From positions 1 through 38,330 of the forward strand of contig JAKFUS010000018.1 of the NCBI GenBank assembly GCA_021732605.1: a stretch of 38,330 nt of DNA, in the 5' to 3' direction. The position numbers and the translations under genes were made by a program. This document shows positions 26,025 to 38,330 of this stretch, in pieces; positions within the stretch are counted from its first letter, which is position 1, and each line of letters opens with the position of its first letter. The notes under the pieces were generated by a model. That model did not search any database and was not told the origin of the DNA. It saw only the letters and a list, made by a program, of their open reading frames with translations. Origin of the DNA: Betaproteobacteria bacterium (lineage in GTDB: Bacteria > Pseudomonadota > Gammaproteobacteria > Burkholderiales > SG8-41).

Positions 26025-27659
26025 ATGCCCGCCCTGCCCCGTTTCCGTCCGCGCCTCTTCGAGGTCATCGGCGAATACAACGCCGCGCGATTGCGCGCTG
26101 ACGTGCTGGCCGGCATCACCGTCGGCATACTCGCGCTACCGCTGGCGATCGCCTTCGCCATCGCATCGGGCATGACGCCGGAATCAGGCATCTATACCGC
26201 GATCATCGCCGGCTTCATCGTCTCGGCACTCGGCGGCTCGCGCGTGCAGATCGGCGGTCCGACCGGCGCATTCATCGTCATCGTCTACGGCATCGTCGTC
26301 CAGTACGGCGTCGCCAACCTGCTGATCTGCACACTGATGGCAGGCTTCATGCTGCTGGCGATGGGCCTGCTGCGCATGGGCACATGGATCCGCTTCATTC
26401 CGGTGTCGGTGATCAGCGGTTTCACCAAGGGCATCGCGGTACTGATCCTGCTGTCGCAGGTGCGGGATTTTCTCGGCCTCAGCACCGGGCAATTGCCGGC
26501 GGAATTTTTCGCGCAGATTACGGTGTTGTGGCAGGCGCTGGATACCGTGAACTGGACCGCGGTCGCGCTGTCTCTCGCCTGCCTGGCGTTGATCGTATTC
26601 TGGCCGCAGGCCTGGCGCGTGGTGCCCGCACCCATCGTCGCACTGGTCGCGGGCACTGCGGCTGTGGCCCTGTTCCACCTGCCGGTGGAAACCATCGGTT
26701 CGCGTTTCGGCGGCATTCCGCAAACGCTGCCGGGCTTCGCTTTTCCCGAACTGTCCGTGGCAACCATCCGCCACCTCATTGGGCCGGCCATCGCCATCGC
26801 GCTGCTCGGCGCCATCGAATCACTGTTGTCGGCCACCGTCGCCGACAACATGATCGACGACCGCCACAAACCCAACCAGGAACTGATGGCGCAGGGCATT
26901 GCCAACATCATCGCCCCGCTGTTCGGCGGTTTCTGCGCCACCGGCGCCATTGCCCGCACCAGCACCAATGTGCGCATGGGCGCCTTCGGCCCGATCTCCG
27001 GCATCGTACACGCGCTGACCCTGCTGGCCATCGTGCTGGTTGCCGCCCCGCTGGCAACACATGTGCCACTGGCCGCACTGTCGGCAATCCTCGTCGTCGT
27101 CGCCTGGAACATGGGCGAATGGCATGACTTCCGCGAAATGCGCCGCTACACCATGAACTACCGTGCCATCCTGCTCGCGACCTTTGTGCTGACCGTGGTG
27201 TTCGACCTGACCGTCGCGGTCGAAGTCGGCCTGGTGATGGCAGCGATTTTTTTCATTACCCGCATGTCATCGCTGACCGGCGTCACCGAAATCCCCGCCA
27301 GCGAGACATCCGGCAGGGTGCGCGCCTACGAAATGTTCGGTTCGCTGTTTTTCGGATCCGCCAACAAGCTCGAACCACTGCTTGCCAGCGCCGACCCTGC
27401 GGATCCGGCGCGGGTGGTCGTGCTCGACCTGCAGAAAACCCTCAACGTCGATACCACCGGTCTCGACATCCTGGAGGCGCTGCGCCGCAAACTCGCGAAA
27501 AACGGCAAGACCCTGATCATCGCCGGCGCCGGTGCGCAGCCGCTGTCGCTGTTCCAGCGCTCGGGATTCACGCAAAAACTTGGCGCAGAAAATCTCTGCG
27601 CCGACCGCGCCACCGGCATGGTACGCGCTGCAACTTTGTCTCAACACCACACTTCGTAA
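26025..27659 (+). CDS. SulP-family inorganic anion transporter with STAS domain
   Basis: 544 residues. Ten or more membrane helices (about 25-400) contain the SulP hallmark near helix 1 (LAGITVGILALPLAIAFAIA), GGPTGAF (substrate-site region) and FGGFCATGAIARTSTN. A cytoplasmic STAS domain (about 425-535) includes VLDLQKTLNVDTTGLDILEAL. SulP proteins of the SLC26 type move sulfate, bicarbonate or dicarboxylates. No carbonic anhydrase or sulfate assimilation gene is adjacent, so the substrate is open. It ends 13 bases before the acylphosphatase start. Confidence 0.95.
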   Translation: MPALPRFRPRLFEVIGEYNAARLRADVLAGITVGILALPLAIAFAIASGMTPESGIYTAIIAGFIVSALGGSRVQIGGPTGAFIVIVYGIVVQYGVANLLICTLMAGFMLLAMGLLRMGTWIRFIPVSVISGFTKGIAVLILLSQVRDFLGLSTGQLPAEFFAQITVLWQALDTVNWTAVALSLACLALIVFWPQAWRVVPAPIVALVAGTAAVALFHLPVETIGSRFGGIPQTLPGFAFPELSVATIRHLIGPAIAIALLGAIESLLSATVADNMIDDRHKPNQELMAQGIANIIAPLFGGFCATGAIARTSTNVRMGAFGPISGIVHALTLLAIVLVAAPLATHVPLAALSAILVVVAWNMGEWHDFREMRRYTMNYRAILLATFVLTVVFDLTVAVEVGLVMAAIFFITRMSSLTGVTEIPASETSGRVRAYEMFGSLFFGSANKLEPLLASADPADPARVVVLDLQKTLNVDTTGLDILEALRRKLAKNGKTLIIAGAGAQPLSLFQRSGFTQKLGAENLCADRATGMVRAATLSQHHTS

Positions 27660-27971: not shown

Positions 27972-28679
27972 TCAATTTTTCGGTGCCGGACTGCTGTTGC
28001 GATGGATCGTCGCAGCGCGCACTGCGAGTTTGTCAGCCTCCGGCTTGCGACCCAGCGCCTCCAGCACCTGCGCCAGGTTGTTCAGCGTGTGCGCAACACT
28101 GGGACTGGTTGGCCCCAAAGTTTTTTCCTTCATCGCCAGCGCACGGCGCAGTACCGGTTCGGCCTCGGCATTGCGCCCCTGCGCGTGCAGCGTCGCGCCG
28201 AGGTTGTTCAGGCTCGCCGCGGTTTTCGGATCATCACCGTAGCTTTTTTCGAACACTGCGAGCACGCGCCGGTGCAGCTTCTCGGCTTCGGCGTATTTTT
28301 TCTGCGCCTGCACCACGTCAGCGAGGTTGTTGACCAGAATCGCCACCGCCGGATCGCGCGGCCCGAGGGCCTTCTCGCGCAAGGCCAGTGCGCGGCGGAA
28401 TTCCCTCTCCGATTCGGGATAACGCTGCGCAAAGCGCAGCACCAGACCCAGCGTGGCAATGCTCTGGTCGTAGGTGCGGTGTTTTTTACCGAAGCTGCGT
28501 TCAGCTTCGGCGATGGCCTCGCGTGCAAACAATTCCGCCTGCTGCAGGCTGCCGCGCTGCACGTGCAGATTGGCCTGGTCGGTCAGCATTTTCCATTCGA
28601 GCTCGCCGGCTGAAACCTGCACAGTGCACGCCAGCAACGCGACGGCGAATGCGATGCGCAGCTTGGTCTTAATTCCCAT
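27972..28679 (-). CDS. Exported TPR protein (kinesin light chain-like repeats)
   Basis: 235 residues from the ATG at 28679; a TTG two codons upstream is less likely. A signal peptide (MGIKTKLRIAFAVALLACTVQVSA) precedes four or more 42-residue TPR_12-type units with a recurring A-E-x-x-x-R-R-A-L-A-x-x-E-K-x-L-G-P pattern (REFRRALALREKALGPRDPA, LHRRVLAVFEKSYGDDPKTA, PVLRRALAMKEKTLGPTSPS). Such repeats bind peptides or partner proteins. It is likely periplasmic, role unknown. It overlaps the end of dnaE by eleven bases and so is translationally coupled to a polymerase with which it has no obvious link. Confidence 0.85.
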   Translation of the reverse strand: MGIKTKLRIAFAVALLACTVQVSAGELEWKMLTDQANLHVQRGSLQQAELFAREAIAEAERSFGKKHRTYDQSIATLGLVLRFAQRYPESEREFRRALALREKALGPRDPAVAILVNNLADVVQAQKKYAEAEKLHRRVLAVFEKSYGDDPKTAASLNNLGATLHAQGRNAEAEPVLRRALAMKEKTLGPTSPSVAHTLNNLAQVLEALGRKPEADKLAVRAATIHRNSSPAPKN

Positions 28680-31600
28680 ATTCAATATTGACGTTCTCCG
28701 GCTTCAGCCATTCGCCCAAAGAACGCAACAGGTCCTCATTGAGGTTGACCTGCCAGGCGGGCCCCAGTTTCACCTCGCAGAGCGCACCATTACTGGTGTA
28801 TTCGATGGCCACCGTGCAGCGGCCCTGACGGTGCGGACTGAGCAGTTCTTTGAGCTTGCTGCCGGAAGACTGACCGTTGCAGGTCAGGCGGATGCCGCGG
28901 GCGTAACGATTGCGCGCTTCGTTGAGGTCCATGATGTCCATGGCCTCAAGCCGCAACGAATTGTCGCCCGCACCATTGCCCCCATTACCCGGGTCTTCGG
29001 CTTCGGGGCTGCGGTAACGCTGGCGGCCACGCACTTCGATCACCAGCAGCTCATCCGCGCGCAGCTTGTGGCGGTGGCGATCGAACACCTCGCGGAACAC
29101 CACCACTTCGTGTTTGCCGGTGTCATCGGCCAGGGTCACGATGCCCATGCGGCCGCTGGCGGTGTTCTGCACGCGCACCGACAGCACCACGCCGGCGATG
29201 TTTGCCGTGCGCCCGCCGATGTCGCTGGCGGTCTGCAGGTCGCCGAGTTTTTTGCTGACCATGCGCCGCACTTCGTCGCGATAGACGTTGAACAGGTGGT
29301 CACTGCGGTAATAACCCAACGCCAGTTTTTCGTTCTGCAGCAGCTCCTTTTTGCTCCAGCGCGGAATATTCGCCGGCGCCACCACCCGCGGCGCATCAAC
29401 GGCGTCGCCGAACAAACTGTTCTGTGAGGCGGAGCGGCTCGCCTGCTCGGCGCTCTCCAGCGCGAGGCCGACGCAGGCCATCAGTTCTGCACGATTGTCG
29501 TTCACGCCGTCAAAAGCTCCGGCGCGCACCAGCGACTCGACCACGCGCCGGTTGACCACGCGTTTGTCGACGCGGTGGCAGAAATCGAACAAATCCTTGA
29601 ACGGCCCTCCAGTAGTACGCGCCTCGACGATCTGCTGGATCGCACCTTCGCCGGTGCCCTTGATGCCGCCCAGGCCGTAACGAATGCTTTTTTCATCGAC
29701 CGGCGCGAAACGATAACCGCCGGAATTGACGTCGGGCGCCAGCACTTCCAGCCGGTTGTCGCGCGCGTCATCGACCAGCTGCTGCACCTTGTCGGTATCG
29801 TTCATCACCGCCGACATGTTGGCCGCCATGAAAGCGGCCGGATGGTGCGCTTTCATGTAGGCCGTCTGGTAGGCCACCAGCGCATAGGCCGCGGCATGCG
29901 ACTTGTTGAAGCCGTAACCGGCGAATTTTTCCATCAGGTCGAACAGCTCGTCGGCCTTGCCCTGGTTCAAGCCGTTTTTCGCCGCACCCTCGCGGAACAG
30001 GCCGCGGTGTTCGGCCATTTCCTCCGGTTTTTTCTTGCCCATCGCACGGCGCAGCAGGTCGGCGCCGCCGAGGCTGTAACCGCCGATGATCTGCGCCATC
30101 TGCATCACCTGCTCCTGGTAGACCATGATGGCGTAGGTTTCAGAGAGGATGCTTTCGACGCGCGGATCGGGGTAGCTGAACCGTTTGCCGTGTTTGCGCG
30201 CGCAGAATTCCGGGATCAGCTCCATCGGTCCCGGACGATAGAGGGCGACCAGCGCAATAATGTCGCCGAAACGGTCGGGTTTGGCGCTTTTCAGCATGTC
30301 GCGCATGCCGCGCGATTCAAACTGGAACACGGCCGATGTATTGGCCTTGGCAAAAATATCGTAGGCCGCCTTGTCGTCCAGCGGCAGTTTTTCCAGCTTC
30401 AGCGTGGATGATGGGTCCAACTGCTTGATGTATCTGAGTGTCCAGTCGAGGATGGTCAGCGTGGTCAGGCCGAGAAAGTCGAACTTGACGAGACCGATGG
30501 CTTCGACGTCGTCCTTGTCGAACTGGCTCACCGCGGCATTCGACGCGTCAGCGACATACAGCGGACAGAAATCAGTCAGCTTGCCCGGCGCGATCAGCAC
30601 GCCACCGGCATGCATGCCGACATTCCGCGTGAGACCCTCAAGCGTGCCGGCCAGCTCCAGCAGCTCGGCGACTTCCTCTTCTTTTTTCTCGCGCTCGGCG
30701 AGCTGCGGCTCCATCTTGCGTGCTTCTTCCAGTGTGATGTGCTTGCCGGGCTGGAAGGGAATCAGCTTGGCGAGCTGGTCGCAGAAGTTGTAACCCAAGT
30801 CGAGCACGCGGCCCACGTCGCGCACCACCGCCTTGGCCGCCATGGTGCCGAAAGTGGCGATCTGCGACACCGAATCCGCGCCGTAGCGCGTTTTCACATA
30901 ATCGATGACGCGGTCGCGGCCGTCCTGGCAGAAGTCAATGTCGAAGTCGGGCATCGACACCCGCTCGGGGTTCAGGAAGCGTTCAAACAGCAGGTTGTAA
31001 CGCAGCGGATCAAGGTCGGTGATGCCGAGGCTGTACGCCACCAGCGAACCGGCGCCGGAACCGCGGCCCGGCCCCACCGGCACGCCGTTCTGTTTCGCCC
31101 AGTTGATGAAGTCGGCAACGATCAGGAAATAACCCGGGAAACCCATTTGCAGGATGGTCTTGATCTCGAACTCCAGCCGCTCGCGATAGGTCGGATCCTG
31201 CTTTGCACGCTCCGCCGCATCGGGATACAGCTCGGCCATGCGCAGGTCCAGGCCCGCACCCGCCTGTTCGCGCAGATGCTGCTCGAGGCTGACGTTTTCC
31301 GGTGTCGGGAAATGCGGCAGCCGGCTTTTGCCCAGCGTCAGTCCCAGCGTGCAGCGCTTGGCGATTTCGATGGTGTTTTCCAGCACCTCCGGCACGTCGG
31401 CAAAGAGTTCCACCATCTCGCGCTGGGTTTTGAAATACTGTTCACCGCTGAAACGTTTCGGCCGGCGCTGGTCGGAGAGGATGTAGCCCTCGGAGATGCA
31501 CACCCGCGCCTCGTGCGCGCGGAAATCCTCGGGTTTGAGGAACTGCACCGGATGCGTGGCGACTGCGGGCAGGCCCAGCGCGCCCGCCAGTTGCAGCGCG

Positions 31601-32178
31601 CGCTCGACATGCTGCTCCACCGGGACGGTCGCCGCACCCCCAGTCATCGCCTGCGGCCCGAGGCGCTGCACTTCGAGGTAATAACGGCCGGGAAACAGCG
31701 CCGCCCATTCCTGCGCCAGCCGGCGCGCGGCATCTTGATGGCCGGAGACCAGCGCTTGGCCGACGTCGCCGTGATGGGCGCCCGAAAGTACGATCAGGCC
31801 ATCGGTGCTGATCTCGGTCAGCCACTCCTTCATCACTTCGGCACGGCCGCGATACTGGTTGCTGCGATAGGCGCGGGTCAGCAGCTCGCACAGGCGCAGA
31901 TAACCCTGGTAGTTCTGTGCCAGCAGCAGCACCCGGAAGGGATTGTCGCGGTCGGCCATGTTGCTGAGCCACAGGTCACAGCCGGTGATCGGCTTCAGGC
32001 CCCCTGCCCGCGCGGCCTGATAAAACTTGACCATGCCGAACACATTGCCGAGGTCGGTCAGGCCCAGCGCCGGCATGCCGTCGGCCTTTGCCGCGGCCAC
32101 GGCTTCATCGACGCGCACGATGCCATCAACGATGGAATATTCGCTGTGCAAGCGCAGATGAATGAACGCAGGCTGCAT
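28669..32178 (-). CDS. dnaE: DNA polymerase III alpha subunit
   Basis: 1169 residues, the usual DnaE1 length. It is the replicative polymerase of the chromosome. Domains in order: PHP (about 1-280, starting FIHLRLHSEYSIVDG), palm with the catalytic aspartates in MPDFDIDF (Asp411 and Asp413) and the preceding GPGRGSGAGSLVAY, thumb and fingers (YRPGPMELIPEF, YGFNKSHAAAYALVAYQTAY), tandem HhH, an OB domain (about 985-1080), and a C-terminal tau-binding region. The PHP motif HSEYS lacks the full metal set of proofreading PHP domains, as usual for proteobacterial DnaE. It is intact, with no frame break. Confidence 0.98.
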   Translation of the reverse strand: MQPAFIHLRLHSEYSIVDGIVRVDEAVAAAKADGMPALGLTDLGNVFGMVKFYQAARAGGLKPITGCDLWLSNMADRDNPFRVLLLAQNYQGYLRLCELLTRAYRSNQYRGRAEVMKEWLTEISTDGLIVLSGAHHGDVGQALVSGHQDAARRLAQEWAALFPGRYYLEVQRLGPQAMTGGAATVPVEQHVERALQLAGALGLPAVATHPVQFLKPEDFRAHEARVCISEGYILSDQRRPKRFSGEQYFKTQREMVELFADVPEVLENTIEIAKRCTLGLTLGKSRLPHFPTPENVSLEQHLREQAGAGLDLRMAELYPDAAERAKQDPTYRERLEFEIKTILQMGFPGYFLIVADFINWAKQNGVPVGPGRGSGAGSLVAYSLGITDLDPLRYNLLFERFLNPERVSMPDFDIDFCQDGRDRVIDYVKTRYGADSVSQIATFGTMAAKAVVRDVGRVLDLGYNFCDQLAKLIPFQPGKHITLEEARKMEPQLAEREKKEEEVAELLELAGTLEGLTRNVGMHAGGVLIAPGKLTDFCPLYVADASNAAVSQFDKDDVEAIGLVKFDFLGLTTLTILDWTLRYIKQLDPSSTLKLEKLPLDDKAAYDIFAKANTSAVFQFESRGMRDMLKSAKPDRFGDIIALVALYRPGPMELIPEFCARKHGKRFSYPDPRVESILSETYAIMVYQEQVMQMAQIIGGYSLGGADLLRRAMGKKKPEEMAEHRGLFREGAAKNGLNQGKADELFDLMEKFAGYGFNKSHAAAYALVAYQTAYMKAHHPAAFMAANMSAVMNDTDKVQQLVDDARDNRLEVLAPDVNSGGYRFAPVDEKSIRYGLGGIKGTGEGAIQQIVEARTTGGPFKDLFDFCHRVDKRVVNRRVVESLVRAGAFDGVNDNRAELMACVGLALESAEQASRSASQNSLFGDAVDAPRVVAPANIPRWSKKELLQNEKLALGYYRSDHLFNVYRDEVRRMVSKKLGDLQTASDIGGRTANIAGVVLSVRVQNTASGRMGIVTLADDTGKHEVVVFREVFDRHRHKLRADELLVIEVRGRQRYRSPEAEDPGNGGNGAGDNSLRLEAMDIMDLNEARNRYARGIRLTCNGQSSGSKLKELLSPHRQGRCTVAIEYTSNGALCEVKLGPAWQVNLNEDLLRSLGEWLKPENVNIEYGN

Positions 32179-32304: not shown

Positions 32305-33330
32305 TTATTTTGAACGAACACCTTTCCTGTACATCCCGGCAAGCTCTTCTGCTTCGGCAGCCATTTCACGACGCAAGCCAGCTGGACGCAGGACTTCGAC
32401 TCGCCCGCCAAAACCCAGCAGCCACCAGCGCAATTGCGGCGTATCGGTAACCGTCGCAGTCAGCCGCATCTCCTCGTCGGATACAGAAACCAGCCTCTGA
32501 TCCCTGGATAGCGGCGTTTCCTGGAGGTGATTTCCCGTGCCGCCGCGAAACAACAATTCGATTTTGAGGCTGCCCCCGTTGCCGAATCCGAAAGCGCCAT
32601 CGCGGACATACCCGTCAAGGGTGAAACCATCGGGCACCCGTACCACGGAATCCTCAAGCGCTTTGGCAGACTTGATCCGGTGCAAAGCCAGAATGCGCGG
32701 TTCATCATATTCAAATACCGTACAAACCAGGTAAGTCACCGCCCCGCGCTGCACTAACCCCAGGGGACTGACGGTCATTGCCGCGGGATTAGGCTCAAAT
32801 GGCCGCTGGTAGCTCACCTCAATCCGCTGAGCCGCGAGAAGCGCATCAGCCACAACCTGCTGCACGCCCGCAGCAATCTTTGGCGGCAGCAGTTCCTGGG
32901 TGGCCGGTACTACGGTAATTTTTTCGAGCCAACTCCCGGCACCACGAGTTTTCGGCAAGCCATTGAGCACCTTGCGCGCATTGTCAAAGCGCGGACGCAT
33001 GTGCTCCACCACAGATCCGGGCAGGAGCGCGTCGAGAAACCGTTCCGCCAGCGCCAATGCCAGGGCCTCATCAGCCGTCAATCCCGGCACATTGAATTCA
33101 GCAGCATCCTGTCGCCAACTCCAGCCGTAAGGCTTGCTGCGCTCGTCCAATCTCAGCGGAAATACCAGCGACAGATCATGCAGGTCACGCTCAATGGTGC
33201 GCTTCGTCGCATAGAGTCCCCGGACTTCCAGTTTTTCCAGCAACTCGCGGGCAGTCGTCTTGACCGGATACCGCGGCACCATGCCAAGCATGTGCCAGTG
33301 GCGAAGCATCGTCGTACGGTCGGGCGTCAT
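32305..33330 (-). CDS. WYL-domain transcriptional regulator
   Basis: 341 residues. An N-terminal winged helix-turn-helix (about 1-75, TARELLEKLEVRGLYATKRTIERDLHDL) is followed by a WYL domain (about 140-225) with PLGLVQRGAVTYLVCTVFEY and an R-I-K-S-A motif, and a WCX-like C-terminal part (about 230-330). WYL proteins are ligand-sensing regulators, often of defence or DNA-repair genes. It diverges from the DUF2779 nuclease gene across 140 bp that holds a perfect 19-bp palindrome, which occurs again upstream of the FtsZ-like gene. It is the natural candidate for binding both sites. About 126 bases of AT-rich sequence without a clear element separate it from the dnaE start. Confidence 0.92.
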   Translation of the reverse strand: MTPDRTTMLRHWHMLGMVPRYPVKTTARELLEKLEVRGLYATKRTIERDLHDLSLVFPLRLDERSKPYGWSWRQDAAEFNVPGLTADEALALALAERFLDALLPGSVVEHMRPRFDNARKVLNGLPKTRGAGSWLEKITVVPATQELLPPKIAAGVQQVVADALLAAQRIEVSYQRPFEPNPAAMTVSPLGLVQRGAVTYLVCTVFEYDEPRILALHRIKSAKALEDSVVRVPDGFTLDGYVRDGAFGFGNGGSLKIELLFRGGTGNHLQETPLSRDQRLVSVSDEEMRLTATVTDTPQLRWWLLGFGGRVEVLRPAGLRREMAAEAEELAGMYRKGVRSK

Positions 33331-33405
33331 GGATCAAATCCTCGGATGCAGGTCTGGGCCATACTATCCCCAGCCCGACGCATTTATGCGCTACCGGGGC
33401 CGGAA

Positions 33406-33424
33406 TGCGACACACTTTGTCGCA
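33406..33424. promoter_or_regulatory. Palindromic operator 1 (TGCGACA-N5-TGTCGCA)
   Basis: TGCGACACACTTTGTCGCA is a perfect palindrome with seven-base arms and a five-base centre, near the middle of the WYL/DUF2779 divergent region. A second copy with the same arm length, spacing and six matching bases per arm lies at 38145-38163. Probably the WYL regulator's operator (inference). Confidence 0.75.
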
Positions 33425-33470
33425 CACCGAGCATACCATTCGCACGAGTTAATCGCGTCGAAAGCAAAAC

Positions 33471-34931
33471 ATGCCCACGCCACGCCTTTCCAAGTCCAAG
33501 ATCATTTCAGGCCTGCAATGCCCGAAACGGCTGTATCTCGAAACCCATCACCCGGAACTTGCCGAAGAGGACACCGGCACCGAGGCGCGCTTTGCAACGG
33601 GCCACGCGGTCGGAGAAATTGCCCGCCAACTGCGTCCGGGCGGACATCTGGTCGAACACATCAAAAACCTGCGAGCAGCCCTCAAATCCACCAGCGACCT
33701 GCTCCAATCGAAACGATCCGCCCTGCTTTATGAAGCGGCGTTTGAGCACTCGGGCGTCCTGATCCGGGCAGATATTCTCCGCCAACGCGCCGGGGCTTTA
33801 CATCTGACGGAGGTCAAGTCATCAACCACCATAAAGGATTACCACCTGCATGACGCTGCGATACAGGCATGGGTCGTTTCGGGTGCCGGCCACAAGCTCG
33901 GATCAATCAAGATCGCCTGCATCGACAGCGATTTTGTTTATCCCGGCAACAATGACTATGACGGACTGCTCGGCTATACCGATGTCACCGAAGAAATACA
34001 GCCGCTGCTTAAAGATATCCCCAAGTCGGTCATGGAACTGAGGAAATGGCTGACCGGAAAAACCATTCCGGACATCGACATGGGAGCGCAATGCAATACT
34101 CCATTCACCTGCCCGTTTCAGAGTTTCTGCGGAATAGACCTGCCGGAATACCCGGTCACCCTGTTGCCGCGTGGCGGCAAAGTCGTGGACGCATTGCTGG
34201 CTGAGGGCTACCAGGACTTGAAAAAAGTGCCGAAAGACAAACTCCGCAATGAAACTCATCTGCGCGTCTGGCGCGCAACCCGGAAGGGAAAACCCGAGAT
34301 AAAGCCGGTTCCGGCCGAACTGATCCGCAATAAACCCTATCCCCGCTATTACCTGGATTTCGAGACCATACAGTTTGCGGTACCGATATGGGCCAGTACC
34401 CGGCCTTACGAGCAGCTGCCGTTCCAGTGGTCATGCCATATCGAGAACAAGGCTGGCGATATCACCCATCGCGAGTTTCTGGATATTTCCGGCGACCTGC
34501 CGGTTCGCGCGTTCACGGAAAGCCTGATCGATGCGGTCGGAACTAAAGGCCCGATTTTTGTTTACAGCGCATTTGAGTCTCGCGTGATTCGCGATTTGGC
34601 AAACCGGTTGCCGGAGCACGCCAAAGCCCTCATGGCCATTAATGGACGTCTTGTCGATTTATTGCCAATTACTCGTGAGCACTACTACCACCCAGAGATG
34701 ATGGGGTCGTGGTCCATTAAATCGGTGCTGCCTACCATTGCACCGGAACTTGACTATTCGTCCCTTGGTGAAGTGCAAGATGGCGGAATGGCGCAGATGG
34801 CATTTTTAGAAATTATCGCCGCAGTTACCACAAATATCCGCAAAACAAATTTACGAAAAGCATTACTAAACTATTGCCGACAAGACACCCAGAGCCTTTT
34901 AAAGCTGGCGGAATTTCTTAAAAAGCAATAA
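33471..34931 (+). CDS. DUF2779 protein: Cas4-like Fe-S nuclease fused to a DEDD exonuclease domain
   Basis: 486 residues. The N-terminal half (about 1-225) looks like a PD-(D/E)xK nuclease of the Cas4/RecB type: Asp101 (IRADIL), then Glu114-x-Lys116 (TEVKSS). Four cysteines are placed as in Fe-S Cas4 proteins: Cys17 (LQCPKR) early, and Cys208, Cys214 and Cys220 (CPFQSFC) late. The C-terminal half (about 290-486) has a DEDD/RNase H-like exonuclease pattern with Asp296 and Glu298 (YYLDFET), Asp396, and Asp472 in YCRQDTQ. It would be an exonuclease with two active sites on DNA, consistent with a defence or repair role. It diverges from a WYL regulator. Ribosome binding site weak (GAAAG). Confidence 0.85.
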   Translation: MPTPRLSKSKIISGLQCPKRLYLETHHPELAEEDTGTEARFATGHAVGEIARQLRPGGHLVEHIKNLRAALKSTSDLLQSKRSALLYEAAFEHSGVLIRADILRQRAGALHLTEVKSSTTIKDYHLHDAAIQAWVVSGAGHKLGSIKIACIDSDFVYPGNNDYDGLLGYTDVTEEIQPLLKDIPKSVMELRKWLTGKTIPDIDMGAQCNTPFTCPFQSFCGIDLPEYPVTLLPRGGKVVDALLAEGYQDLKKVPKDKLRNETHLRVWRATRKGKPEIKPVPAELIRNKPYPRYYLDFETIQFAVPIWASTRPYEQLPFQWSCHIENKAGDITHREFLDISGDLPVRAFTESLIDAVGTKGPIFVYSAFESRVIRDLANRLPEHAKALMAINGRLVDLLPITREHYYHPEMMGSWSIKSVLPTIAPELDYSSLGEVQDGGMAQMAFLEIIAAVTTNIRKTNLRKALLNYCRQDTQSLLKLAEFLKKQ

Positions 34932-34989
34932 AAATCCCCACCCTTCCGATACTCAATATCAATGAAAATACTTATCGCTCGCCACCACC

Positions 34990-35670
34990 TTAGACTCGCC
35001 TCTTATTCACTTTCCGCACGAGTTTGATAAGCCTATCAACTGAAAGCGGACTCTTCGTCGAATGAGCAAGCCTGTGGCAATTTGCACAAAGCAATCTTAA
35101 GTCCTTAATCTCTGTCTTACCGCGATGCCGCGGACTGCTCAAAGGAATATTGTGATGGCACTCGATAATCGACAATGCATCGCGCCCGTATTTCTTAAGG
35201 TAGTCCACGCCACAGGCCTCACACTTTAATTTTCCAGACTTATAAGCCTGCCGCTTTAAATTTCTGGCCGCATCTGAATCTCGTTCGCGAACATAGTGCA
35301 TCTTTAATCTTTTTTTACCTTCGCTTGTAGTAGTTGGAAGTCCGCTATGGGCTTTTTCTACCACGCTCCTTAAACGTGCAATATCTTTTTGAGTTTTCTC
35401 TCGCACATCACTCTGATTGTAATGGTCGAAGTTCCTCAAAACATGGGACACAACTTCCGCCACGTCAGTATTAAAGTCAGCATCTCTCCAATCATCAGAA
35501 CAAATTGCCCCAGGACCGTTACCTCCGCATCTTGCCAAATACGGGCAGCTATCTAAACATGGCTCCTTCACTGATTTTACCCACACCTCCCATCCTTCAC
35601 CTCCGGGGAGAACCGAGTCCAGAATTTCCATTTGCTTATCAGATAACTTGAGAGACTTGATTAACCTCAT
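34990..35670 (-). CDS. HNH endonuclease
   Basis: 226 residues with an excellent ribosome binding site (GGAGGAGAT before the ATG). The C-terminal HNH domain (about 145-205) shows Cys150 and Cys153 (CEAC), the catalytic His pair in ECHHNIPLS (172-173), then C-A-N-C-H-R-L-A-H (Cys195, Cys198, His199, His203). The N-terminal part is unfamiliar, with a Cys cluster at 38-57 (CLDSCPYLARCGG) that may bind zinc or an Fe-S centre, and a helical linker. Base composition is clearly AT-richer than most neighbours, a sign of separate acquisition. It lies downstream of the PcfJ-like gene, 92 bases away, on the same strand, and converges with DUF2779. Target unknown. Confidence 0.9.
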   Translation of the reverse strand: MRLIKSLKLSDKQMEILDSVLPGGEGWEVWVKSVKEPCLDSCPYLARCGGNGPGAICSDDWRDADFNTDVAEVVSHVLRNFDHYNQSDVREKTQKDIARLRSVVEKAHSGLPTTTSEGKKRLKMHYVRERDSDAARNLKRQAYKSGKLKCEACGVDYLKKYGRDALSIIECHHNIPLSSPRHRGKTEIKDLRLLCANCHRLAHSTKSPLSVDRLIKLVRKVNKRRV

Positions 35671-35762
35671 ATCTCCTCCACAACAAATTAGTCGAAGAAC
35701 GATCCATGGTCACGTGAATTACAGAAAACACCCCGCGACGCACATTACCACGAGCAAATCAA

Positions 35763-37178
35763 CTAAGCATGCGCCGTATATTCTCGCGCCAATCTCTCCA
35801 CTGCATTTTTTATTTTTACTCCAAGACTTGAGTTTTTGAAACCCTTAACCTGCCCGACAAACCATTTACTCCTCAACAACAGATCATCAATATGCAACTC
35901 AACCGTTGCCAAGCGCCGCCGAGTCCGGACTGACCGAATCGAAAAAACGCGGCTTTTCCCTCTCGCGCAATCAACATCGTACTGAGCAACACAGTGTTTC
36001 ATGGCTTCACCCTCCTCCCGCAAGGCTTCGGATGAAGTTAGCGGAACAAACAGATACCCCCCATCTTCGTGCTCGGGTAATGCCGACTCCCAACTCAGAT
36101 TCCTCGGCATGTCATCCTCCCATTGATCTGATAGTTCTGAGTTGTAGATTCGGGCACGCTCCACCAGTCCTCCCCAACCGAGCTTGTGCAAGCCGCTCAA
36201 CCGTGGCTCTTCCTCACGAAGCCATACACAAACAGCAGCAAAGTCATCGTCAAAAAAATCCTGGACGAGTCCGGTCTCTGCACGCGCCCTCACCTCGCGC
36301 GCCATGACCTGCACCGCCGCCACGGGCAATTCATGCAAGCATCCCGCCTCCTTATCAGCCAAATGATCCGCAAATCCAGACGGCCCTTCCTCACGCGCAA
36401 GGTGGTAAACCGAGAATGCGGCTGCAAAATTCTCAAAAATTTCCTCCCTCCCACCAAGGCCGGGGATCAGTGTATCTATGGTCTGCCGTGGCAGCTTGAT
36501 CAGGTCGCGCCATCCATTCTTGGATATCCCCGCTTGACGCAACTCACCCTTGATTTCCTTGAGGATGTCGCTGCCACCCCAAAGACAACTGTTTACGAGT
36601 CCCGAGTATCCGAGCGGCAGCAGATTAGGCGCGTGGTGCAGCAATTCCCTGAGCGACTCAATTTCCTGCCAGACCTTGGAGTACCAATGCCCGTCGATTT
36701 CTTTAAACTCGATCCTCGGCACCAATTCGGCTATGGCCAACACGTCAGCGTTCAGATCCAGCGCCGCAATCGTTTCCCGATTGATCCGCTCAATATCAAC
36801 CAGTTCTCGTGCCACCTGTAAAAGCACGCCCCTGTCACCTGGGGCGATTTGAGCTGTATTGCCTTCGTCACATTGCCGCATCGCAATGCGTAACTGCCGT
36901 TCAAGCGCCTGCTCAACATCATCCAGAGAAAACGGTCGCCGAACATTGGCAACACAAAAATCACGCAGGGGCAGCGCGTGCTCATCTTCGCCCTGCAGCG
37001 GCACAAGCATCATTGTCAGCATGCGTCTTTGACAATCCATTTCAATCTCGGCACCAAGAACTCTCACATGCCGCAACTCGGCATCGCCATGGACGACGGG
37101 ATGGACCGGCAACAGTTTCACCGCCGCACGCACCATCGCGCGAATGTCGCTGCCCTCTGCACACGGAGTGTTAAACAT
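35763..37178 (-). CDS. PcfJ-like domain protein
   Basis: 471 residues from the ATG at 37178, which follows a GGGAGG site and overlaps the stop of the FtsZ-like gene by eight bases; an upstream in-frame ATG is rejected for lack of such a site. The C-terminal region (about 370-460) matches the PcfJ-like pattern: EGEAMKHCVAQYDVDC, then a G-K-S-R-V-F-S-I-R strand, T-V-E-L, and a Q-V-K-G-F-K-N end. PcfJ was first noted on an enterococcal conjugative plasmid, and its biochemical role is unknown. The first 350 residues are mostly helical and unfamiliar. Tight coupling to the FtsZ-like gene implies joint function. Confidence 0.72.
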   Translation of the reverse strand: MFNTPCAEGSDIRAMVRAAVKLLPVHPVVHGDAELRHVRVLGAEIEMDCQRRMLTMMLVPLQGEDEHALPLRDFCVANVRRPFSLDDVEQALERQLRIAMRQCDEGNTAQIAPGDRGVLLQVARELVDIERINRETIAALDLNADVLAIAELVPRIEFKEIDGHWYSKVWQEIESLRELLHHAPNLLPLGYSGLVNSCLWGGSDILKEIKGELRQAGISKNGWRDLIKLPRQTIDTLIPGLGGREEIFENFAAAFSVYHLAREEGPSGFADHLADKEAGCLHELPVAAVQVMAREVRARAETGLVQDFFDDDFAAVCVWLREEEPRLSGLHKLGWGGLVERARIYNSELSDQWEDDMPRNLSWESALPEHEDGGYLFVPLTSSEALREEGEAMKHCVAQYDVDCARGKSRVFSIRSVRTRRRLATVELHIDDLLLRSKWFVGQVKGFKNSSLGVKIKNAVERLAREYTAHA

Positions 37179-38097
37179 TCGCCCTCCCCGCCACCAGTTC
37201 CGGTGCTGATCCTGCCGCCAACACATGTAGCTCGATGGCCGATCCTTGCATAACCCATTGATTCCATTTAAATATTAGATCAACATCACCTTCACGCTCA
37301 GATAGCTGCCGGCACGCACGCGCAACCGAAAAATAAGTGTCGTAATCCATCGCACCGTAGACAGTGATTTGGGCGCGCCGTATTTGATGCCGGTCCAGCC
37401 CGGCCAGCCGTAGCTGTGCCACGCAGGATTCAACGGCATCGACCACTGAGCCTGGACTGTCCGCACGACCACGGGCAAAGGCCATAATCGGGGCGTCACG
37501 CAGCATGCGTTGGAAATCGCCCCAATCGAAGGACTGATCGTGCGTTGAGCCAACCAGGTCCAGCAGCACATTGGTGAGATCAAGCTCACTCAGGGAAGCC
37601 AGAACCGGCACTCCGGATTGCAGCAGACGCTGGCAGGTCAGATTCGAACGAACCGCATCCCGCCCCATCAGGCCCGGCCCGCGCACAATGGCAAGCACGG
37701 TATTCCCTGCACGCTTGTGCTGTACCGCCTGATCGAGCAGGTCCGGATACAGGTGGGCGCGAGCCGGGTTGAAATTCAGCAGCAGAAGGTCTGGCCGAAA
37801 GTGGCGTGCTGCATGCGGCGCGCCCTGCCAGCGTTTCCAAAACGCCTCATTCACGTCCGCAAATGTGACGCGCACGAGGTCCACTTCGTGCGGCTGGGTG
37901 CCGAGAAATTTTGCCTGCTGAGCAGTCACCATCCGTCTATCGGGGAAATCGTCAGGAATCCAGCAGTCAATCCCGGCAAGCGTATTTTTAGAAGGAGCAA
38001 CAAATCCGGCGAATGCCCCGCCGACCACCGTCGACCACATACCGGGAATGGTTACGACCACGCACCCCAACCCCTGCAAGAACCGTCGTCTATCCAT
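37171..38097 (-). CDS. Tat-signal protein resembling a degenerate FtsZ/tubulin
   Basis: 308 residues from the ATG at 38097 (TGAGG about eight bases before it); earlier in-frame starts lack such a site. The N-terminus MDRRRFLQGLGCVVVTIPGM has a twin-arginine pattern and hydrophobic stretch, so export or membrane anchoring is predicted. Residues about 189-297 (FDWGDFQRMLRDAPIMAFAR, then RAQITVYGAMDYD, ending in IELHVLAAG) align by eye along their whole length with the C-terminal domain of FtsZ (VDFADV..., GARGVLVNITAGFDL, LRVTVVATG). The 100-185 part echoes FtsZ after the GTP-binding loop (NTVLAIVRGP against ILTVAVVTKPF), but the GGGTGTG signature is absent. It would thus be a non-GTPase relative. 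The tubulin assignment is inference. Confidence 0.6.
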   Translation of the reverse strand: MDRRRFLQGLGCVVVTIPGMWSTVVGGAFAGFVAPSKNTLAGIDCWIPDDFPDRRMVTAQQAKFLGTQPHEVDLVRVTFADVNEAFWKRWQGAPHAARHFRPDLLLLNFNPARAHLYPDLLDQAVQHKRAGNTVLAIVRGPGLMGRDAVRSNLTCQRLLQSGVPVLASLSELDLTNVLLDLVGSTHDQSFDWGDFQRMLRDAPIMAFARGRADSPGSVVDAVESCVAQLRLAGLDRHQIRRAQITVYGAMDYDTYFSVARACRQLSEREGDVDLIFKWNQWVMQGSAIELHVLAAGSAPELVAGRANV

Positions 38098-38144
38098 ACT
38101 CTGCCTCACCGTTTTACTTGAATACGGACAGCTTACGGCCATGG

Positions 38145-38163
38145 TGCGACGAAATACGTCGCA
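38145..38163. promoter_or_regulatory. Palindromic operator 2 (TGCGACG-N5-CGTCGCA)
   Basis: TGCGACGAAATACGTCGCA has perfect seven-base arms and a five-base centre, 48 bases upstream of the FtsZ-like start codon. It matches operator 1 at 33406 in arm sequence (one compensated base pair differs) and geometry. The remaining 167 bases to the window edge contain no gene I can support; a related but imperfect CGCGACACATATCGCA stretch occurs near 38210-38226. Confidence 0.75.
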
Positions 38164-38330
38164 GACGGATTGTCGTATCCAACCAGAGGTAGGCCTCGTC
38201 GTTTTGCGTATCGCGACACATATCGCATGCACGAGGCGGATAGCAGCAACGTCCCGCTTGATGGTCAGATTTGGGCAATTCACGCATAATCGCCGCCGCG
38301 CATCATTCCTTGCGCGCACCCCGCCCCGCC

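What the first reader, a model, noticed from the sequence alone, without database searches (positions are those of the whole stretch)
32305..38330. Candidate undescribed system: WYL regulator, Cas4-like/DEDD nuclease, FtsZ-like, PcfJ-like and HNH genes under one operator
Two transcription units converge: WYL<->DUF2779 on the left, and FtsZ-like / PcfJ-like / HNH on the right. The same rare 19-bp palindrome sits in front of both. Two nucleases, a ligand-sensing WYL regulator and a cytoskeleton-like protein together fit a defence or genome-maintenance island, but I know of no named system with this set. The gene calls and palindromes are seen; the functional link is inferred.
Basis: partly seen in the sequence, partly recalled or inferred. 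Interest (0 to 1): 0.88.

Follow-up and report, generated by a model that had tools for sequence, protein, structure and literature searches.

The report
DriD-like switch controlling nuclease and FtsZ-like genes
A bacterial gene switch of a DNA-damage-sensing type appears to turn on, through one shared DNA signal, a two-headed DNA-cutting enzyme and a gene that may resemble cell-division proteins; related switches elsewhere sit beside the same enzyme, true FtsZ-family genes and candidate phage-defence genes, a combination we did not find described.

Summary
TGCGAC-N7-GTCGCA occurs exactly twice in the 3.48 Mb genome: between divergent WYL and DUF2779 genes, and 47 nt before the ATG of the FtsZ-like/PcfJ operon. 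It is a conserved operator: the commonest palindromic half-site at that spacing in 41 DUF2779 loci, followed at a fixed distance by a -10-like hexamer across 22 hand-picked operator-gene pairs. It nearly equals the published target of DriD, an ssDNA-activated WYL activator (PMC12340889), and DriD is the closest solved relative of the WYL family (E 3e-9). A WYL gene lies near DUF2779 in 21 of 39 loci. Clear FtsZ-family genes stand at such operators (exact or one mismatch) beside WYL-DUF2779 in two other lineages, a decayed one probably in a third; one locus runs into PDC-M27ABC. Most likely: an ssDNA-sensing WYL activator induces a Cas4/DEDD nuclease plus an FtsZ-like partner during phage attack or DNA damage. 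Regulation is well supported; the effector mechanism is inferred.

The parts
32305..33330 (-). wHTH-WYL-WCX regulator, DriD-like
   Evidence: Pfam WYL 1.9e-12 and WCX 3.3e-16; profile of 10 family members hits DriD structures at 3e-9
33406..33424 (.). operator 1, TGCGACACACTTTGTCGCA, between WYL and DUF2779
   Evidence: conserved in relatives
33434..33439 (+). -10-like hexamer TACCAT, 9 nt after operator 1, for DUF2779
   Evidence: inferred, no transcript data
33471..34931 (+). DUF2779 protein: Cas4-like PD-(D/E)XK nuclease with four invariant Cys, fused to a DEDD 3'-5' exonuclease
   Evidence: Pfam DUF2779 5.8e-43; PADLOC Cas4 8.9e-7; catalytic residues invariant in 11 aligned members
34990..35670 (-). 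HNH endonuclease-like gene, possibly last in the FtsZ-like operon; lower G+C (0.45)
   Evidence: Pfam HNH 3e-7; PADLOC mREase_IV 2e-6; G+C
35763..37178 (-). PcfJ-domain protein, 471 aa from the ATG that overlaps the preceding stop
   Evidence: Pfam PcfJ 4.3e-12 on the longer frame; overlap read from sequence
37171..38097 (-). FtsZ-like candidate, 308 aa, twin-arginine-like N-terminus
   Evidence: no Pfam hit; collinear but not significant alignment to the FtsZ C-terminal domain
38130..38135 (-). -10-like hexamer TAAGCT, 9 nt after operator 2, for the FtsZ-like operon
   Evidence: inferred
38145..38163 (.). operator 2, TGCGACGAAATACGTCGCA, upstream of the FtsZ-like gene

Best explanation
The region is a small regulon of a DriD-like WYL activator. 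Shown by sequence: one operator type lies before both DUF2779 and the FtsZ-like/PcfJ operon, in the place of a -35 element with a -10-like hexamer 9 nt behind it. Inferred: ssDNA arising from phage replication or DNA breaks binds the WYL domain, the protein then binds both operators and recruits RNA polymerase, and the cell makes (a) the Cas4-like/DEDD nuclease, which degrades the offending DNA ends, and (b) an FtsZ-like protein with PcfJ (and perhaps HNH), which most likely arrests division or acts at the envelope while DNA is cleared, much as DriD induces the division inhibitor DidA and the nucleases BapE and RecJ in Caulobacter.
For: Two exact operators only, genome-wide. TGCGAC with a 7-nt gap leads all hexamer half-sites of that spacing in 41 loci (13 sites in 11 loci; next 4) and has no copy at spacings 3-6 and 8-11. 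Exact operators in 10 of 21 DUF2779 loci with WYL against 2 of 18 without (p 0.018; two genomes give two loci each), the latter two being cut by contig ends. In 22 operator-gene pairs a -10-like hexamer follows at 8/9 nt: mean best match 3.64 of 6, best position in shuffles 2.63 (SD 0.11), 0 of 2000 reach it. DriD consensus ATACGAC-N7-GTCGTAT and sites over -35 (PMC12340889). DriD closest solved relative, E 3e-9; PafBC 2e-4; 7qfz (BrxR by recall) 0.04; CapW 0.56. FtsZ-family genes at operators beside WYL-DUF2779: R. antarcticus plasmid (Tubulin 1.2e-23), G216 (2.9e-19), decayed in G285 (FtsZ_C 0.0028). DUF2779 catalytic residues invariant. PDC-M27A/B/C next door in L018.
Against: The window protein has no significant FtsZ similarity: no Pfam match; 245 of 2,005 control sequences (2,000 of them shuffles) score above it against an FtsZ profile; 42 of 200 shuffles reach its C-terminal score and 22 of 112 other proteins do; two AlphaFold models have mean pLDDT under 51; no FtsZ among the 50 best Foldseek rows shown of 1293. 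PcfJ, HNH and this FtsZ-like protein were found in none of 44 other loci. The double-AAA ATPase that goes with FtsZ in both clear cases gave only two partial matches in this genome. 11 of 21 WYL loci have no exact operator (6 none within one mismatch). DriD similarity covers WYL-WCX only; the HTH found no DriD match. Toward the WYL gene itself no -10 follows. Repression is not excluded. No expression or phage data.
Confidence: 0.55

Rival explanations
1. The WYL protein is a BrxR/CapW-type repressor: it shuts both promoters in healthy cells and lets go on infection.
For: BrxR and CapW are WYL regulators of defence loci that bind palindromes in the promoter region (PMC9122601, PMC9122588, PMC9122589; passages); an operator over -35 would also block polymerase.
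Against: Operator sequence and the WYL-WCX profile are far closer to DriD, an activator; where a -35 hexamer should be, the operator itself lies and does not resemble TTGACA, as expected of activator-dependent promoters (read).
Confidence: 0.25
2. The left pair (WYL-DUF2779) and right operon are unrelated neighbours; the second palindrome is chance.
For: PcfJ and HNH were not found with WYL-DUF2779 elsewhere; HNH has lower G+C; FtsZ similarity not significant; the frame of the FtsZ-like gene stays open across operator 2.
Against: Only two exact sites in 3.48 Mb, 4.7 kb apart, both upstream of gene starts and both with a TAnnnT hexamer 9 nt behind; FtsZ-family genes at operators in other lineages.
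Confidence: 0.12
3. A genome-maintenance (DNA damage checkpoint) module rather than phage defence: nuclease for broken DNA, FtsZ-like part for division delay.
For: DriD controls a division inhibitor and nucleases in Caulobacter (PMC4211646, PMC12340889; passages); some operator neighbours look like housecleaning genes (5'-nucleotidase, histone-deacetylase-like).
Against: Patchy distribution (43 of 399 genomes of the order, none of the four same-genus genomes listed), presence on plasmids (31 records) and PDC-M27/GmrSD-like neighbours fit defence better.
Confidence: 0.4
4. The FtsZ-like protein is not tubulin-family but an unrelated exported protein of unknown fold.
For: Direct tests negative.
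Against: Collinear alignment with a T7-like D-x-x-D and a similar C-terminal end, an N-terminus MxRRxxxQxLG shared with the R. antarcticus FtsZ, only 3 of 60 shuffles reaching the score of residues 93-300, and the same place at an operator.
Confidence: 0.45

Closest known systems
DriD regulon (Caulobacter, ssDNA-activated WYL activator)
   Same: Half-site CGAC with 7-nt gap, site in the -35 place, WYL-WCX similarity, targets include nucleases and a division inhibitor (PMC12340889, PMC4211646; passages seen)
   Different: Outer base differs (TGC for TAC), regulator sits beside its targets, targets are DUF2779 and FtsZ-like genes; HTH not matched; ssDNA response untested
SiwR (mycobacterial WYL activator of genotoxic stress, PMC10693628; passages)
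   Different: Controls DinB/YfiT-like genes; site not compared base by base
BrxR and CapW, WYL regulators of BREX and CBASS
   Same: wHTH-WYL-WCX regulator in defence loci, palindromic operator
   Different: Other operators (BrxR 10-11 bp arms, 5 bp gap), weaker similarity (E 0.04, chain named by recall, and 0.56), repression
DUF2779 / Cas4-like nucleases
   Same: PD-(D/E)XK and DEDD motifs; DUF2779 was placed with 3'-5' exonucleases carrying DUF83 (PMC3985635, passages)
   Different: No CRISPR genes noticed in the neighbourhoods looked at; linked to WYL and a shared operator here
FtsZl1 and FtsZl2 families (PMC2875224, passages)
   Same: Non-division FtsZ-superfamily proteins
   Different: FtsZl1 goes mostly with vWA operons, FtsZl2 with no associated genes; 'WYL' does not occur in that text
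IetAS
   Same: Double-AAA ATPase in relatives resembles IetA (3e-40 and 2e-42)
   Different: No IetS match among the proteins scanned; ATPase not found in full length in the window genome

Membership tests
DriD-type WYL activator | WYL and WCX domains similar to DriD | tested here: met
   Pfam; E 3e-9 to DriD structures, best of all solved chains
DriD-type WYL activator | palindromic CGAC-N7-GTCG target | tested here: met
   TGCGAC-N7-GTCGCA against ATACGAC-N7-GTCGTAT; binding itself not tested
DriD-type WYL activator | site in place of -35 at fixed distance from -10 | tested here: met
   geometry only, no start site mapped, exact DriD spacing not compared
DriD-type WYL activator | ssDNA binding in the WYL domain | not testable with these tools
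   two WYL arginines (212, 218) invariant in 10 aligned and shared with DriD
DriD-type WYL activator | DriD-like DNA-binding domain | tested here: inconclusive
   residues 1-126 found no DriD chain at E 10
FtsZ/tubulin superfamily (window protein) | profile match to tubulin GTPase or FtsZ_C | tested here: not met
   none at E 10; score within shuffles
FtsZ/tubulin superfamily (window protein) | GGGTGTG nucleotide loop | tested here: not met
   NFNPARAHL at the aligned place
FtsZ/tubulin superfamily (window protein) | tubulin fold | tested here: inconclusive
   models of pLDDT 50.7 and 46.3; no FtsZ in the 50 Foldseek rows shown
FtsZ/tubulin superfamily (L018, L102) | GTPase and C-terminal domains | tested here: met
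Cas4-like/DEDD nuclease (DUF2779) | PD-(D/E)XK, Cys cluster and DEDD residues | tested here: met
   D101, E114, K116; C17, C208, C214, C220; D296, E298, D396, Y468, D472 invariant in 11; motif meaning recalled
PcfJ family | PF14284 above cut-off | tested here: met
   46.5 bits, cut-off 25
BrxR/CapW repressor | closest similarity to BrxR or CapW | tested here: not met
   E 0.04 (7qfz, BrxR by recall) and 0.56 against 3e-9 for DriD

The most novel reading that the evidence does not exclude
An ssDNA-triggered anti-phage or genome-guard system in which a DriD-type activator jointly switches on a Cas4/DEDD nuclease and a tubulin-superfamily protein, sometimes exported, that acts as effector by seizing the host division machinery or membrane; the window carries a fast-evolving version whose GTPase site has decayed and whose AAA partner is replaced by PcfJ.
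Probability: 0.3. Interest if true: 0.9.

Novelty: new variant of a known kind. Interest (0 to 1): 0.72.

Why it matters
The operator gives a way to read out which genes a DriD-like WYL switch commands in many bacteria: nucleases, AAA ATPases, FtsZ-family proteins and candidate defence operons. A tubulin-family protein under an ssDNA alarm next to a nuclease would tie division control to defence and makes a direct test possible: which signal opens these promoters, and what does the FtsZ-like protein do to the divisome.

Tried and rejected
FtsZ-like protein in the 84,980-species scan: 2 hits, both rejected by me as false (a short shared patch in another protein). In plasmids: none; viral contigs: none; 100 relatives: only itself; 398 genomes of the phylum: 7 others at E 0.006-0.01, short, judged chance.

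R. antarcticus FtsZ against 399 genomes: swamped by the housekeeping FtsZ (387 of 399 at E 1e-28); G123, G216 and G769 are the listed genomes with more than one match; G123 and G769 were not followed.

PcfJ as the link: 14 of 300 genomes, own included, have a match; of seven neighbourhoods fetched, six have no operator and one has a 1-mismatch site (L055). An HNH gene is annotated beside a WYL gene in one plasmid (L167); it was not compared.

AAA and WYL plasmid loci L159-L170 held no FtsZ by profile at E 1; exact operators occur in L161, L169 and L170, 1-mismatch sites also in L160, L164 and L166.

Foldseek on the single-sequence model: the 50 rows shown are argonautes, glycosidases, decarboxylases and the like with TM at most 0.31; a low-confidence model, rejected. 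The alignment-fed model is no better.

Literature (open-access PMC only): no paper with both DUF2779 and WYL; 6 with DUF2779 (passages of one read); none with PDC-M27; PcfJ/FtsZ-like/defense gave 97 papers with two of the words, 20 listed, almost all on C. elegans; of 15 listed of 18, one on jumbo phages (PMC7824862) holds both FtsZ-like and WYL and was not opened. Papers were seen as passages only, none read whole.

Full report
What is there. The window is a complete contig of a 3.48 Mb genome. At its right end a WYL gene and a DUF2779 gene diverge around the palindrome 33406-33424. DUF2779 converges on an opposing set: FtsZ-like (37171-38097), PcfJ-like (ATG 37178, overlapping the FtsZ-like stop by 8 nt) and HNH, with the second palindrome 38145-38163 ending 47 nt before the FtsZ-like ATG. 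The frame of that gene stays open upstream to the contig end, so the ATG is my choice (twin-arginine-like start, GAGG before it). The two palindromes are the only exact copies of TGCGAC-N7-GTCGCA in the genome.

The palindrome is an operator. DUF2779 was found in 43 of 399 genomes of the order at E 1e-10; I fetched 39 neighbourhoods from 37 other genomes (five genomes with weak partial matches left out) and 5 from plasmids. A WYL relative lies in 21 of the 39 (some partial, weakest 25% identical, up to about 4 kb away). Exact operators occur in 10 of these 21 and in 2 of the 18 without WYL, those two being contig ends where WYL could be cut off; within one mismatch 15 of 21 and 4 of 18 (Fisher p 0.018 for exact, though two genomes give two loci each). 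Counting every hexamer half-site at spacings 3-11 in 41 loci (531 kb; three redundant loci dropped, window left out), TGCGAC with spacing 7 leads with 13 sites in 11 loci; the runners-up at that spacing have 4. A stricter 14-base form was found at 16 sites in 13 of 389 genomes, against 3 sites for the reversed control; 10 of the 16 are in DUF2779 loci already fetched or the window. Of the other six, one has DUF2779 fragments beside it and the rest show no WYL or DUF2779 by tblastn in the 3 kb held.

Promoter geometry. I aligned 26 operator-gene pairs picked by hand from sites with at most one mismatch upstream of genes, two of them (L104:13015, L106:9164) not directly before a clear start. Dropping the four that lead to WYL genes, I tested 22: a TATAAT-like hexamer starts 8 or 9 nt after the operator, mean best match 3.64 of 6, while the best position in shuffled flanks averages 2.63 (SD 0.11; 0 of 2000 reach it). 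Both window operators have TAnnnT at 9 nt. A -35 hexamer would fall inside the operator, where nothing resembles TTGACA (read). DriD promoters are described so: poor -35, DriD site over it, fixed distance to -10 (PMC12340889, passages). Toward the window's WYL gene the hexamer is missing.

Which WYL. A profile of 10 family members matches DriD chains best (E 3e-9, over the whole WYL-WCX part), then PafBC (2e-4), a further WYL chain 7qfz (0.04) and CapW (0.56). That 7TZV is DriD is stated in PMC12340889; that the other top chains are DriD, and that 7qfz is BrxR, is recall. The half-site CGAC and the 7-nt gap equal the DriD consensus; one G216 site even has TACGAC on one side. Arginines 212 and 218 are invariant and present in DriD. 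The HTH part found no DriD match, so the DNA-reading part is compared through its site only.

Which nuclease. DUF2779 has the Cas4-like PD-(D/E)XK residues, four invariant cysteines and a DEDD set, Y-x3-D included, in all 11 aligned (motif names recalled). PMC3985635 places DUF2779 among presumed 3'-5' exonucleases and reports a DUF83 nuclease-like domain in it.

FtsZ. In the R. antarcticus plasmid the gene divergent from AAA-DUF2779-WYL, with two one-mismatch operators between, encodes a real FtsZ-family protein (Tubulin 1.2e-23, FtsZ_C 2.6e-13) behind a Tat-like leader; the record calls it hypothetical. In G216 two copies of the module carry an FtsZ with recognizable nucleotide loops, divergent from DUF2779 across an exact operator, followed by a one-mismatch operator and the AAA gene. 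Three of 399 genomes are listed with more than one FtsZ match, and G216 is one. In G285 the gene between the operator and DUF2779 is probably a decayed FtsZ (FtsZ_C 0.0028, under cut-off; FtsZ profile 0.0013; hhalign 2e-4); I noticed it as the top scorer among 112 control proteins. So FtsZ-family genes attach to this regulon in two lineages firmly and a third probably; in the rest of the 44 loci and in L159-L170 none was found by profile.

The window FtsZ-like protein. No test establishes it: no Pfam match, hhalign E 0.1-0.5, 245 of 2,005 control sequences above it, C-terminal score reached by 42 of 200 shuffles and 22 of 112 other proteins, models of low confidence. Residues 93-300 do slightly better (3 of 60 shuffles reach the score). 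What speaks for it is its place at an operator, a collinear alignment with D-W-G-D-F at the T7 loop and LHVLAAG at the end, and the shared N-terminus with the R. antarcticus protein. If it is FtsZ-derived, its nucleotide loop is gone and the central helix shortened.

Partners. The AAA protein resembles IetA and accompanies both clear FtsZ cases; only two partial matches to it exist in this genome. PcfJ, HNH and the window FtsZ-like protein were found in none of the 44 other loci by tblastn. The R. antarcticus locus continues into PDC-M27A, B and C, which PADLOC lists (candidate defence set by recall of the name); another WYL-DUF2779 locus has a GmrSD-like gene. Housecleaning-type genes also occur near operators (5'-nucleotidase, histone-deacetylase-like, DnaQ-like).

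Verdict. One regulon: about 0.85 likely in my judgement. DriD-like activation by ssDNA: about 0.6. Defence rather than general damage response: about even. FtsZ identity of the window protein: about even. The set is not described in the searches made.

Noticed in passing
L102 and L122 (G216:C1 about 1.03 and 1.85 Mb): The whole FtsZ-AAA-DUF2779-WYL module stands twice in one genome, in opposite orientation.
   Followed up: partly
L018:4562-5671: Plasmid-borne FtsZ-family protein with a Tat-like leader, annotated only as hypothetical (WP_162274854.1).
   Followed up: partly
L091:2884-3783, L102:11055-11957, L102:12356-13294, L104:13596-14495: Histone-deacetylase-like and 5'-nucleotidase genes recur near WYL-DUF2779; the one in L091 lies directly behind an exact operator.
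   Followed up: partly
L096:785-1474, L106:9934-10593: Nmad2 (nucleotide modification) genes lie near WYL-DUF2779 in two genomes.
   Followed up: no
G000:C48:18888-20738 (L057): A second PcfJ-domain gene in the same genome, without an operator; one like it in the same-genus genome G001.
   Followed up: no
G123 and G769: Genomes with a second FtsZ match that were not examined.
   Followed up: no
L176 (G759:C100): Exact operator before a gene whose start looks like a WYL-type HTH (by eye); not matched by tblastn.
   Followed up: no
L167 (Methylomonas plasmid): Short HNH gene annotated next to a WYL gene; not compared with the window HNH.
   Followed up: no
window 28669-32178 and 26025-27659: By eye, a DNA polymerase III alpha subunit and a SulP-type transporter border the island on the left; ordinary.
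   Followed up: no
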